Positions 51,353 to 57,422 of a stretch of 64,000 nucleotides of DNA are shown piece by piece. Location: the NCBI RefSeq assembly GCF_004379335.1, contig NZ_CP038013.1:496001-560000 (forward strand). The letters are read 5' to 3'. Numbering within the stretch: position 1 is the first letter of the stretch; the number at the start of each line of letters is the position of its first letter. The stretch comes from Spiroplasma gladiatoris (GTDB lineage Bacteria > Bacillota_I > Bacilli_A > Mycoplasmatales > Mycoplasmataceae). The translations under genes were made by a program, and so were the position numbers. The notes under the pieces are model-generated. The model saw only the letters and a program-made list of their open reading frames with translations, had not been told where the DNA came from and did not search any database.

Positions 51353-51383
51353 ATTGATATAATAAAATGAATAGGTGATACAA

Positions 51384-52790
51384 ATGTTTTTTAAAAGTTT
51401 AATTAAAGTAAATTTAAGTATTATTAGTATTTTGCCAAGTGTTTTTGTTTTTGGTTGTTTTGAACCTAATAATGTTATTGCTCATTATGAAATGAATAAT
51501 AATTATGCATACTCAAATATTTTCAAAACCAAAAGTGGAACAAATTACAGTATATTACCAATTTTAGAACAAAAAGAGTCTGAAACTGAGACAATAAACA
51601 ATAACGATCGCTTAATGCAATTGGTTATTGACTATAATAACGGCGAACTAATAATAGATGAAAAAAATTTTAACATGATTTATGAGATAAATTATATCGG
51701 TGGTAAATTAGAAAAAGAAGTTTATAATGATTTATTATCTAAAAATTACGATGAAGCTTCTAAAGTTAAATTTGCATACGATTATTTAGCAAGTGAGTTT
51801 AAAATAAATATTTTTGACAATAAAGATTACGAATTTATTTACGACTATACAGACTTAACTTTGAAAAATAATGTTAAAGATAATAGTTATTATTTAGAAC
51901 AAATTTATGAAGATCAAGAATTATATCTATGTTCAGATCAATACATAGAAATAACTAATGGTAAAAAAATGCTTAATTCAAAATCTAAACTTTATGATAT
52001 TAATACAGTATTAAATTCAAACAATTTAGCTCATTTATTAAATTCTAATCAAATTGATATTAAAGAGTATCAAGATTTAGAAGGAAAAATTAAATATGAA
52101 ATTGTTACTTCAACTACAAATTTAGATGCAATTATTGATGAAAATAAATACTTGGAATTCAAAGAAGAAAGTGAAAGTGAAAATAAGCAGACCAAAAAAT
52201 TTGATCCTAAAAATGTTGATAAAAAAGCGATTTTTAAAGAACTTCAAAATAAAAACAAATTTCAAAGTTTAACTTTTGATGATGTTGATATTAGTGATCC
52301 TGAAAAAATACCAAAACCTAAAGAACAAAAAAATACACAAGAATCAGAAGTTAAAAAATATGACTATTATAAAGTTACTATAAATTCTAAAAGTAACTCA
52401 GCAAAATTTAATGGTGAAGCTAATGTTATTTTAGAAGTAGAAATAATACCAGAAATACCAGTTGATCCAGAAATACCAGTTGATCCAGAAGCATCACAAC
52501 CTAAAAAAACTACTAAAGTAAATCGAGTTAATAATAACAATGTAAACGGTAATTTGGTTAATAACTTTTCTAAAGTATTTTTAAAAATGTTTGATAAACA
52601 GAGTTTAAATTTAAATTTCGTAGTTAAACAAAAAGAAGAAAAAAACAAAATCAAAACAGATGTTAATGAATTTAATTCAGAAGTGAATAAAAAATTTATT
52701 TTAGATGGAAAATTAATATCCAGAATAACTGTTTTAAATACAATAAAAAAAGAAGAGGATGAACAAAATGCTCAAAAAAATTCTTTATAG
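51384..52790 (+). CDS. Lipoprotein with PVDPEI repeat
   Basis: A 468-residue predicted lipoprotein. The signal peptide is MFFKSLIKVNLSIISILPS then VFVFGC, with the lipobox Cys at residue 25. ATG 51384 is preferred to an in-frame GTG at 51375 that lies within the RBS (AGGTGA). The body is Asn/Asp/Lys-rich. Near residue 357 two perfect copies of an 18-bp unit encode EIPVDP. A KKTTKVNRVNNNNVNGNLV linker follows. The next lipoprotein gene starts 23 nt before this one ends, so both are in one operon. Function is unknown. Confidence 0.8.
   Translation: MFFKSLIKVNLSIISILPSVFVFGCFEPNNVIAHYEMNNNYAYSNIFKTKSGTNYSILPILEQKESETETINNNDRLMQLVIDYNNGELIIDEKNFNMIYEINYIGGKLEKEVYNDLLSKNYDEASKVKFAYDYLASEFKINIFDNKDYEFIYDYTDLTLKNNVKDNSYYLEQIYEDQELYLCSDQYIEITNGKKMLNSKSKLYDINTVLNSNNLAHLLNSNQIDIKEYQDLEGKIKYEIVTSTTNLDAIIDENKYLEFKEESESENKQTKKFDPKNVDKKAIFKELQNKNKFQSLTFDDVDISDPEKIPKPKEQKNTQESEVKKYDYYKVTINSKSNSAKFNGEANVILEVEIIPEIPVDPEIPVDPEASQPKKTTKVNRVNNNNVNGNLVNNFSKVFLKMFDKQSLNLNFVVKQKEEKNKIKTDVNEFNSEVNKKFILDGKLISRITVLNTIKKEEDEQNAQKNSL
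52452..52487 (+). repeat. 18-bp tandem repeat, two copies
   Basis: GAAATACCAGTTGATCCA occurs twice in tandem, encoding EIPVDP-EIPVDP. A related partial unit precedes it. The repeat number could vary between strains. Confidence 0.8.
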
Positions 52791-53652
52791 TTTGACAATC
52801 ATATCGCTTTTTGCAACTAGCTCTTTAACTGTAATGTCATGTGAACCAGTAAAATCTTTTCCATCAGTTAGCGCTACAACAACAATATCTAATTTAAATA
52901 ATTTATTTATAGGGAAAGAAATTCAACCAGTATATTTTGATTATTTAAAATATATTAATGGATTTTTTGAACATAGTAATTTTTCTGATGTTTTATCTAC
53001 AAATAAAGTTACTACTAATAAGATTGAAACTAGTAAATTAAGCGAAGCTAACGTTATTTATTACAATGCTTTAAAAAATATTTATAAACCAATCGAGATT
53101 GGAACAGAATTAGATTTTAGTGGAATGACATTTATAATTGAAAATATTTTTATAGATGATTTTGCATTTGTAAAAAATAATTCTACAAATCAATCTCCAA
53201 AAAAAATAAATGAAAATGAAAATGAAAGTCAAGAAGAAGAGCTATTGTCTTATGCAAATACAACAATGGCTATTACAATTTTAAAAGGTTGAGAGACAGT
53301 TGGAAAAATTCTTTTACAAGTAAAAATGGAAGAAAATGACTATTTTAAAAAAAATATTTCAATGATGTTTATAAATAAATGACTAGAAAGTTTATTTTCT
53401 AATTTAACTATTAATAAACTAAATAAATATGGTTGATATGAATATAGTGGTTATGAAATAAATAAGGACAATATTGATAGTTTTAGAACGAGTATAGTAT
53501 CTAAAACTAATAAATTAAAAAACCTAGAAATAACAAATGAAGACATTAGTTTGTGAAACGAAACTAAAATAGAAATAGATAAAAATGGTAAAGAAATCGA
53601 GAAAAAATATTTTGGTTACGAATTAAAAGGTCAAAAATATATTTATGTATAA
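52768..53652 (+). CDS. Lipoprotein, 294 residues
   Basis: The signal peptide is MLKKILYSLTIISLFATSSL then TVMSC, with the lipobox Cys at residue 25. The start is ATG 52768, 9 nt after GAGG; an ATG at 52759 directly abuts it. The mature part has a region rich in Asn, Ser and Glu (about residues 137-160) and a C-terminal domain with WLESLFSNLTINKLNKYGWY. It overlaps the upstream lipoprotein gene by 23 nt. No recognised domain; probably a surface partner of the upstream product. Confidence 0.8.
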
Positions 53653-54578: not shown

Positions 54579-55514
54579 ATGAAAAAAAGAACTATAAATA
54601 TCGTTGATGATGGTTATTTTCTTTTAAATGAACATCAAAATTTTAGATTTGATAAAAATATAGCAAAAAAATTTTTAGAAAAAATTCAATTTCCAATCAT
54701 TATTTTAGATACTGAATTTTTTAATCACTCGCATGATTCGGGAGATTTAAAAAATAAGTTATATAGTGACAAACAAAAAGATATTGTTTATGTTATTCAA
54801 TATAGTTTTGCAAAATCATTTAAAGAGATTGCGTATCGTGATAATTCAAAAGCAATTAAATCAATTTTTATCAAAAGAGGACTTAACGATAAAACTTATA
54901 ATTTTCATGAACAATATTCTAGAATGATTACAAGTTTTTTAAGTATGTGTCGTAATAAAGAAATTAAAACAATCATTTGTGCTGGTGCAAGTAATGATAT
55001 AAAAATAATTAATCAATGAATTAATGATTATAAGCATTTATTTGCAAGAAGGTCATTAAACATGGCATTTTTAAATAAGGAAAAAAATGAGCTAAATGCT
55101 AATTATTTTGATATTTATGAAATATTAGAAAATGCTTTTAGTTTTTCTAATACAAATGCTATTGGTGAAGAATTTTATAACCCAAAAAATTTACCAGTAG
55201 GAAAACAATCTGATCAAATGATAGCGTTAACAAGTTGTAAGAAATTTTTTGATTGATTTGAAAGCATTGATAATAAAATTTTAAAAAATGAAGATGATGA
55301 AATAAGAAGTTTATGCACGATGGCATATAGTTTCTTTTCTTTTCCTAATAATGAAAAAATGAGTTATGACATTTATAAAAACATGATTGAAGTATTAAGA
55401 AAAGTTGTAGTTCATTGTTACAATGATGTATTAAAAATATTAACTTTTTTAGGATTTGTGTATGAGTTTGTTTATTTGCCTTATTCTAAAAACACATTTA
55501 TAAAAAAAGATTAA
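54579..55514 (+). CDS. DnaQ-like (DEDD) exonuclease-like protein
   Basis: A 311-residue protein with possible DEDD exonuclease motifs. IIILDTEFF near residue 46 gives the first D-x-E. TIICAGASNDIKIINQW near 132 gives the second Asp in the usual (N)D setting. LPVGKQSDQMIALTSCKKFF near 207 could supply the last Asp, but without the usual H-x-A-x-x-D or Y-x-x-x-D. The remainder (to residue 311) is unassigned. Trp codons are TGA. RBS is poor (GTAGGA). The exonuclease call is an inference from three spaced motifs. Confidence 0.5.
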
Positions 55515-55530
55515 TTAATTTATAGATTTT

Positions 55531-55559
55531 TTGCAATAATTATTTTTTTTATGTATAAT
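55531..55559 (+). promoter_or_regulatory. Promoter of leader and APC permease
   Basis: TTGCAA (55531-55536), 17-nt spacer, TATAAT (55554-55559). Confidence 0.7.
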
Positions 55560-55591
55560 AAAAATTAAGAAAAGAAAGATAGGAATTAAAA

Positions 55592-55645
55592 ATGTATAAC
55601 TTAGCAATGTTTTGAAGAGAGGTACAACGAAAACTTAAGCACTAA
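55592..55645 (+). CDS. Putative 17-residue leader peptide
   Basis: ATG 55592 to TAA 55643-55645 encodes MYNLAMFWREVQRKLKH (Trp by TGA), with AGGAA 7 nt upstream. The stop codon enters the 5' arm of the first leader hairpin, so a ribosome reaching or stalling at its end would affect folding. Position and RBS suggest a regulatory leader peptide; translation is unproven. Confidence 0.45.
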
Positions 55646-55719
55646 ATATTTTGGTGCTGTTTTTCAAAATATTGGAGTGCGATATCATAATTAAAATTTA
55701 GCTAATAACTAAATTTTTT
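55639..55719 (+). promoter_or_regulatory. Attenuator-like hairpins before the APC permease
   Basis: GCACT (55639-55643) pairs with AGTGC; inside it AATATTTTG pairs with CAAAATATT. An alternative pairing of GCAC with the nearer GTGC competes with this. After it, AAATTTAG (55694-55701) and CTAAATTT (55709-55716) form an 8-bp stem ending in TTTTTT, a terminator located about 40 nt before the permease start. The order leader peptide, alternative hairpins, terminator, gene is that of an attenuator. Confidence 0.5.
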
Positions 55720-55760
55720 ACTTTGAAAAAACAGATAGACAAATAATAGGAGAAAAAAAT

Positions 55761-57422
55761 ATGTCAGAAAGAGCAAAAACTTTAACGAAATTATCGATAT
55801 TGTTTATGAGTTTTGCGATAATTTTTGGTTTTAGAAATATAATTAATAACCAAGTCCAATTTGGACTGTTAGCTTGTGTACTATTTCTAGTTGGAGGAGC
55901 AATTTATGCAATACCAATGGTACTACTAACTTCAGAATTTGGAAGTATACATAAATTAAAAAATCAAGAAGCAGGTTTAGGATCGTTTTGTGCATTTGCA
56001 CTTGGAAAAAAAGGAGGTTTCTTAGCAAGTTGAGCTAGCTACTTTGGAAATTTATTTTTCTTTGCTACTATGGCTCCGTTTACAGTAATTGCGTTAAGCT
56101 TTTTCTTTTATGGAAAAAATGGTTTTGATGAATTAGCCATAGTATTATCAGCTAAAATTAGTGATGCAAACGCAACAAGGTTAAGTACTTGTACATTGGC
56201 ATTATTTGCAATTTTGATTTTTTGAGCAGGAACATATGTTTCTTCAAAAGGTCCAAAATGAATTGGAAAAATCACAAACATTGGAGGAACTGCTAGTCTT
56301 TGTTTAGGATTATTATTCATTTTAATAGCACTTTGTTACGCACTACCAGTAAATGGTGTTGAAGAAACTTTTGGATGAAATTCATTTAACGCACTAGAAA
56401 ATCAATTTAACGGAGATTGATGAAGTTTTATATCAATGTTGCCGTGGTTAATATTTGCATATAATGGAATTGAAACAATTAGTGTTTTTATAAAAGATAC
56501 AAAAGGTGGATCAAGAGCATTTAGAATTGGATCAACTATTGGAATGGTTTGTGTAATATTTTTAATGGTTATAGGAACATTATTATTAAGTATGACAATT
56601 TCACAATCAGATATTGAAAAATGAGGAATATCTAATTCTTACTTTATGGTTTATCCAAAGATTTTAGGAATAAGTGAATCTAGTGGTTGGCACCGTGCAA
56701 TAGTTCATATTGTAGGATTTGTTACTGCCTTAAATGGAATGGGGTCGTTATTCTTTTGAACAGCTGCACCAGCAAAAGTATTTTTATCAGAAGTTCCACA
56801 TAATACAATGGGAAAATATTTATCAAAAACAGATAAAAATGGAATACCATTAAATGCTTTATGAATTCAAGCAATTGTTGTCAGTGCTATTTTAATTATA
56901 GTTGGTACAACTACTTCAGGAGAAGTTGAAGTTGGAGATGATGGTGTAAAAGCTGTTACTAGTTCAAGTGACTTCTTATCAAGAATTCTTCAAGCAACAA
57001 CCTCGCTAGCAACTGTTCAAATGTTTTATTACTTTTGAGCTTATATTTGGTTTAGGTGAAAAAACGATGATGAACCAAGAGATACGAAATTTTTTAAAAA
57101 TAAAATACCAGCCATAATATTAACATCATTAGCATTAGGGTTAGTAGTTATTGCTTTCTTTTTTGGAACAGTTCCAAGTCCAACTCTTTGAAAAAAAGAT
57201 TGAGTTGATGCATTAATTACTTTTATATTAGTATTTGGAGGATTTATATTCTTTATGGGGATTGGATATTTAGTTTGATATCTTCAAGTTACAAGAAAAG
57301 GAATTCAAGAAGATGGCTCAATTGATCAATCAGCAATTATGAGTTCAAAAAATAGAAAAACTAAAGTTTTAAATTCTACAAATGAAAATACAAATATTGT
57401 GGAATCTAAAAAAGTAGAGTAG
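55761..57422 (+). CDS. APC-superfamily amino acid permease 2
   Basis: A 553-residue transporter with about 12 helices. The N-terminal half has SILFMSFAIIFGFRNIINNQ (about residues 12-31), then FLVGGAIYAIPMVLLTSEFG with the conserved Glu, and WLIFAYNGIETISVFIKDTK typical of the amino acid/GABA antiporter-like branch. The C-terminal tail is charged and rich in Lys, Ser and Asn. It resembles glutamate/GABA-type antiporters, but the substrate is unknown. RBS TAGGAG precedes ATG. Expression is probably set by the leader at 55592-55719. Confidence 0.85.

What the first reader, a model, noticed from the sequence alone, without database searches (positions are those of the whole stretch)
55531..55760. 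Leader-peptide attenuator before an APC permease
A consensus-like promoter (TTGCAA-17-TATAAT), a 17-codon ORF with RBS, competing hairpins that begin at its stop codon and a terminator with T-run all lie before the permease. Classic peptide-based attenuation is rarely described in Mollicutes. The peptide contains Trp (TGA), several Arg/Lys and His near the end, so the signal could be a charged tRNA or a stalling peptide.
Basis: partly seen in the sequence, partly recalled or inferred. Interest (0 to 1): 0.65.

Follow-up and report, generated by a model that had tools for sequence, protein, structure and literature searches.

The report
Rare-arginine-codon leader switch before permease
In ten species of insect-associated Spiroplasma, an amino-acid transporter gene is preceded by a tiny gene that always carries the same rare arginine codon at a fixed distance before an RNA hairpin, which looks like a ribosome-operated switch of a kind hardly described in these wall-less bacteria.

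Summary
The leader ORF is real. In 10 of 11 Spiroplasma (Apis-clade) orthologues the permease is preceded by a short ORF, usually Shine-Dalgarno-led, in frame with CGA-AAR-[CTT/ATG/ATA]. Eleven nucleotides after the C of CGA starts a hairpin (GCAC...GUGC) whose upper stem is re-paired with different bases across species. A pattern search of 60 genomes finds this module once in each of these ten genomes and nowhere else in the genus. CGA is rare (16 of 464 Arg codons in the window) yet present 10/10. The 'terminator at 55720' is a weak AU-only stem, and terminators are not uniform among orthologues. Best explanation: a ribosome-dependent attenuator in which the dwell time of the leader ribosome on the slow CGA-AAR pair decides whether the hairpin forms. 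The signal (charged tRNA-Arg(ICG) or translation speed), the output (transcriptional or translational) and the direction of control are inferred, not shown. Rivals: nascent-peptide arrest, -1 frameshifting at CGA_AAR, an RNA-only element. No Rfam family matches. New variant of a known kind.

The parts
55531..55559 (+). promoter-like sequence TTGCAA-17-TATAAT
   Evidence: -10-like sequences also precede the leader ORFs of the orthologues, but the genome is AT-rich
55581..55584 (+). AGGA, weak Shine-Dalgarno of the leader ORF
   Evidence: sequence; anti-SD energy -4.2 kcal/mol
55592..55645 (+). leader ORF MYNLAMFWREVQRKLKH (table 4)
   Evidence: in-frame ORF in 10 of 10 orthologues with the motif
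55628..55636 (+). conserved codons CGA AAA CTT (Arg-Lys-Leu)
   Evidence: CGA 10/10, AAR 10/10, CTT/ATG/ATA
55639..55680 (+). conserved main hairpin GCAC...GUGC
55639..55665 (+). competing shorter hairpin (55639-55657) plus TGTTTTTC, terminator-like; only in the window and L005
55722..55734 (+). TTTGAAAAAACAG, complementary to the main hairpin's loop (55657-55669); tentative
55748..55752 (+). AGGAG, Shine-Dalgarno of the permease
   Evidence: sequence
55761..57422 (+). APC-superfamily permease (AA_permease_2; YjeM/GadC-like)

Best explanation
A ribosome-dependent leader (uORF) attenuator of the permease gene. A ribosome starts on the short leader ORF near the 5' end of the mRNA and reaches the rare codon CGA (read only by the tRNA-Arg with anticodon ACG, presumably ICG) followed by AAR. 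With this pair in the P and A sites the base of the hairpin lies at the mRNA entry of the ribosome. If the ribosome dwells there, or the leader is not translated, the hairpin can form. If it moves on to the stop codon, which lies in or at the 5' arm, it covers that arm and keeps the hairpin open. The hairpin state then sets permease expression, by termination in species where a U-run follows it and by another route (translation or mRNA stability) elsewhere. The natural candidate signal is the supply of charged tRNA-Arg(ICG), or translation speed in general. Shown by comparison: in-frame ORF, CGA invariance, fixed spacing, covarying hairpin, exclusive link to the permease. Inferred: the pause, the signal, the output and its direction.
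For: Ten of 11 genus orthologues carry the module; one copy per genome, all before this permease, none elsewhere in the genus; the covariance model separates the ten (E up to 1.5e-6) from the rest (best 1.5e-3). An ATG in the frame of CGA, SD-led in nearly all, in 10/10; other two frames have no SD-led ATG. CGA 10/10 against 16 of 464 Arg codons in the window and 3 of 93 in the permease genes. One tRNA-Arg(ACG), two tRNA-Arg(TCT) found in the window's genome. Hairpin arms fit their own species far better than swapped (upper arms -8.45 against -3.86 kcal/mol, 0 of 50,000 permutations), with several pair types. 0-frame stop within 5 codons of the motif in 10/10. CGA was measured as slower than CGU/CGC in a his-leader attenuation assay (PMC4046918). 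U-run after the hairpin or its upper stem in L007, L009, L011, L012 and after the inner hairpin in the window.
Against: Only one CGA codon per leader, whereas amino-acid attenuators usually hold several sensor codons (own knowledge). No uniform terminator: none found in L005, L010, L013, and in L008 only one that overlaps the permease SD. Lys and the hydrophobic third codon are conserved too, which plain Arg starvation does not need. arcA presence does not track the leader (3 of 10 leader genomes), and the permease is YjeM/GadC-like rather than a known arginine carrier. If the hairpin terminates, Arg shortage would lower the permease, odd for an arginine importer. No transcript or footprint data.
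Confidence: 0.5

Rival explanations
1. Nascent-peptide arrest: the leader peptide ending Arg-Lys-hydrophobic stalls the ribosome, alone or with a small molecule, as in ErmCL, TnaC or SpeFL; the stalled ribosome remodels the hairpin.
For: Arg-Lys-[Leu/Met/Ile] is conserved as amino acids while the Lys and third codons vary (AAA/AAG; CTT/ATG/ATA). L008, L010 and L013 share a hydrophobic stretch before it (HIVVKKSRKM, KIVVIDRKL, LIIVDARKL).
Against: Residues before RK are not conserved even in the closest species pairs (2 of 12, 2 of 12, 2 of 7 identical while the permeases are 83-86% identical). The invariant rare codon CGA, rather than the usual AGA, is not needed by a peptide mechanism.
Confidence: 0.17
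2. Programmed or hungry-codon -1 frameshifting at CGA_AAR, stimulated by the hairpin 5 nt downstream; ribosomes that slip read through the hairpin, those in frame stop at its base.
For: CGA_AAG is a proven -1 shift context in Bacillus cdd and IS1222 (PMC5009743). The 5-nt spacer to a stem is the classical stimulator geometry (own knowledge). The -1 frame is open through the whole hairpin in 7 of 10.
Against: In the window and L007 the -1 frame stops after one codon, in L013 inside the hairpin; the shifted products share no length or sequence. Seven of ten have AAA, not the more slippery AAG.
Confidence: 0.1
3. RNA-only element: CGAAARNNNNNGCAC plus stem is a protein- or ligand-binding RNA or an mRNA-stability element, and the ORF is incidental.
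For: The motif reads as a nucleotide string and the stem is strongly conserved in structure. No terminator is common to all.
Against: In-frame ORF 10/10 and a stop within 5 codons of the motif 10/10; synonymous Lys change and hydrophobic replacements at the third codon; no Rfam match.
Confidence: 0.15
4. No regulatory function; inherited 5' UTR sequence.
Against: The surrounding UTR is unalignable while the motif, frame and pairing persist through permeases only 54-86% identical to the window's.
Confidence: 0.04

Closest known systems
Ribosome-mediated amino-acid attenuators (trp, his, thr, ilv leaders of proteobacteria)
   Same: Short leader ORF near the 5' end, candidate sensor codon just before a hairpin whose arm overlaps the end of the ORF, a transporter or biosynthetic gene downstream.
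   Different: A single rare CGA instead of a codon run; no conserved terminator/antiterminator pair; Lys and a hydrophobic codon conserved next to CGA; host lineage is Mollicutes.
Arrest-peptide leaders (ErmCL, TnaC, SpeFL)
   Same: Short ORF, candidate stall near its end, hairpin remodelling.
   Different: Only three C-terminal residues conserved; invariant rare codon.
CGA_AAG -1 frameshift sites (Bacillus cdd, IS1222)
   Same: Same codon pair; here a stem 5 nt downstream.
   Different: No conserved shifted product; 7 of 10 have AAA, not AAG.
T-box and other amino-acid riboswitches of Firmicutes
   Same: Amino-acid transporter downstream; presumed regulation by the 5' leader.
   Different: No Rfam match at all; translated ORF.

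Membership tests
Ribosome-mediated leader-peptide attenuator | translated short ORF near the 5' end of the transcript | tested here: met
   in-frame ORF, nearly always SD-led, 10/10 by comparison; translation itself was not measured
Ribosome-mediated leader-peptide attenuator | conserved sensor codon at a fixed position relative to the RNA structure | tested here: met
   CGA 10/10, stem starts 11 nt after its C
Ribosome-mediated leader-peptide attenuator | run of codons for the regulating amino acid (typical of the amino-acid attenuators) | tested here: not met
   single conserved CGA; other codons vary
Ribosome-mediated leader-peptide attenuator | mutually exclusive terminator and antiterminator hairpins | tested here: inconclusive
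   one conserved hairpin; U-run terminators only in some species; competing inner hairpin only in the window and L005
Ribosome-mediated leader-peptide attenuator | downstream expression responds to the charged tRNA level | not testable with these tools
   needs an experiment
Arrest-peptide leader | conserved peptide residues beyond the last three | tested here: not met
   closest pairs identical at 2 of 12, 2 of 12, 2 of 7 positions before RK
Programmed -1 frameshift element | shift-prone codons plus stimulatory structure 5-9 nt downstream | tested here: met
   CGA_AAR, 5 nt spacer, hairpin
Programmed -1 frameshift element | conserved open -1 frame | tested here: not met
   stop after one codon in the window and L007
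Known riboswitch or T-box | covariance-model match | tested here: not met

The most novel reading that the evidence does not exclude
A codon-pair roadblock switch: the ribosome is held on a poor codon pair (CGA read by an inosine tRNA, then AAR) by a hairpin placed exactly at its mRNA entry, so that the leader senses tRNA-Arg(ICG) charging or modification, or ribosome slippage, through one codon, without a sequence-specific peptide and without a dedicated terminator.
Probability: 0.3. Interest if true: 0.72.

Novelty: new variant of a known kind. Interest (0 to 1): 0.52.

Why it matters
Mollicutes have few transcription factors, and leader-peptide control is hardly described in them: the literature searches here found no paper on it for Spiroplasma. 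Ten natural variants with the same codon, the same spacing and re-paired stems make a ready mutational series for asking how a single slow codon in front of a hairpin can regulate a gene, and whether CGA decoding by the single ICG tRNA is used as a signal.

Tried and rejected
Rfam families in the window (gathering, and permissive over 55400-55900) and in ten orthologous loci: nothing relevant. Named Spiroplasma relatives through genome contigs: two scans gave none and then only distant permeases, mostly of Firmicutes. Laying the whole genome for codon statistics was not possible, so codon usage is from the window. Arginine deiminase as a clue to the signal: no correlation. Long-range pairing of the hairpin loop with a segment about 34-44 nt before the permease: positions cluster in seven species and the species-swap test gives p 0.002, but single-species shuffles are mostly not significant, so it is kept as tentative. 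An intrinsic terminator as the common output: not uniform. Frameshift product: not conserved. Looser covariance-model hits outside the ten genomes are near chance level.

Full report
What was checked. The window lies in a 1.16 Mb genome (G000). [quoted passage not shown] TGA is read as Trp: the permease frame holds 14 TGA. The promoter-like sequence, the 17-codon ORF and a hairpin at its end are there as described.

Comparison. Eleven of 20 genus genomes, the window's included, hold the permease; the orthologues are 54-86% identical to the window's. Upstream of ten of the eleven there is a short ORF containing Arg-Lys-Leu/Met/Ile at or near its end: MYNLAMFWREVQRKLKH (window), MFNIIFINIINNRKLMH, MNNIINLNLIRGSRKL, MPFFNNKRKLKR, MYNFNLKHVELKKHIVVKKSRKMMHYNI, MFNLWINNKIGGRKL, MKTINLKARNLHISKIVVIDRKLMH, MHILFLKRKIKH, MNFTNFLWNTFEIHCKQIRKL, MLIKSTKIIDKQIKKLIIVDARKLGHRNV. 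The eleventh (G001, L014, the most diverged permease) has another leader ORF of 41 codons and a clear terminator but not this motif. Orthologues in two other genera lie directly behind another gene, without a leader.

Specificity. The pattern CGAAARNNNNNGCRCN{20,50}GYGC occurs once in each of the ten genomes, always before this permease, and in no other genome of the genus; two genomes of another genus give one forward hit each, and the reversed control gives 2 hits in 60 genomes. A covariance model built from the ten finds them at E up to 1.5e-6 and nothing else better than 1.5e-3; the ten match by construction, so the informative part is the absence of others.

Translation. In all ten an ATG lies upstream in the frame of CGA without an intervening stop, at 7 to 21 codons, with an SD-like sequence in nine and a poor one in L010. 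In the other two frames no such ATG exists, apart from one without SD. Anti-SD energies are -4.2 kcal/mol in the window, -1.0 in L010, and -5.9 or better in the rest. The 0-frame stop comes 0-5 codons after the motif in 10 of 10. This is the strongest argument that the element works through a ribosome.

Codon choice. CGA makes up 16 of 464 Arg codons in the window's long ORFs and 3 of 93 in the ten permease genes; the leaders have it 10 of 10. The window's genome has one tRNA-Arg(ACG) and two tRNA-Arg(TCT) among the tRNAs found, so CGA depends on the single ACG tRNA. That its first anticodon base is inosine is established knowledge for this tRNA in bacteria, not tested here. CGA was slower than CGU and CGC in a his-leader attenuation assay (PMC4046918).

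Hairpin. GCAC (GCGC in L007) starts 11 nt after the C of CGA in all ten. The upper stem uses several pair types at most positions. Arms from the same species fit at -14.3 kcal/mol on average, swapped arms at -9.4 (p 2e-5); for the upper arms alone -8.45 against -3.86, 0 of 50,000 permutations. The species are related, so permutations do not give an exact probability, but the arms are largely unlike between species and still pair.

What it is probably not. Trp occurs in three leaders, and the CAC is beyond the stop in three; neither can be the common signal. Residues before RK are not conserved in the closest species pairs (2 of 12, 2 of 12, 2 of 7), which speaks against a sequence-specific arrest peptide. 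The -1 frame after CGA_AAR is open through the hairpin in seven species but closed after one codon in the window and L007, which speaks against a frameshift product, although CGA_AAG is a proven -1 site elsewhere (PMC5009743).

Mechanism proposed. With CGA in the P site and AAR in the A site, the first base of the stem lies at position +12 counted from the first P-site base, that is, near the mRNA entry of the ribosome (geometry from established knowledge). A ribosome that dwells there leaves the hairpin intact. One that proceeds to the stop covers the 5' arm. In L009, L011 and L012 the hairpin, in L007 its upper stem, and in the window the competing short hairpin are followed by a U-run, so a free 5' arm would favour termination and completed translation would favour read-through. 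In L006 and L009 a separate U-run hairpin follows the conserved one; in L005, L010 and L013 no terminator was found by the criteria used. The output may therefore be translational, or through mRNA stability, in part of the species. A complementarity between the hairpin loop and a segment 34-44 nt before the permease start in seven species could be part of it, but it is not established.

Signal. The permease is in Pfam AA_permease_2, closest to the YjeM and GadC group but far below the curated cut-offs of those families, so its substrate is unknown. Arginine deiminase was not found in seven of the ten leader genomes. Charged tRNA-Arg(ICG) is the natural candidate, general translation speed the alternative.

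Verdict. A genuine leader module, not found described in the sources searched (Rfam); a new variant of ribosome-mediated leader control, with the sensing step, the output and the direction of control inferred.

Noticed in passing
L014 (G001), about 1255-1475: The most diverged permease orthologue has a different SD-led leader ORF (41 codons, MITDKKIKCKSKIKNLNLYICSLTKISFHSIYCETFYSYLK) and a strong 16-bp hairpin with U-run just before the permease.
   Followed up: partly
L006 and L009 (reverse strand), about 40-85 nt before the permease ATG: A second, AU-rich hairpin with a run of 8-9 U follows the conserved hairpin; it is a better terminator than the one in the window.
   Followed up: partly
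window 54579-55514: The gene upstream of the leader (311 aa, no Pfam or NCBIfam match) has a similar C-terminal part in front of the leader in several relatives (L005, L007, L009, L011), so the locus is syntenic.
   Followed up: no
window 51375-53652: Two proteins with lipoprotein-like N-termini lie upstream, the first with a PEIPVDPE repeat; the second has no Pfam match, the first was not scanned.
   Followed up: no
window 55513-55574: The AT-rich promoter region of the leader is about 79% identical over 57 nt to the region upstream of an alpha/beta-hydrolase-like gene elsewhere in the genome (G000:C1:778381-778437, L002); no leader motif there.
   Followed up: partly
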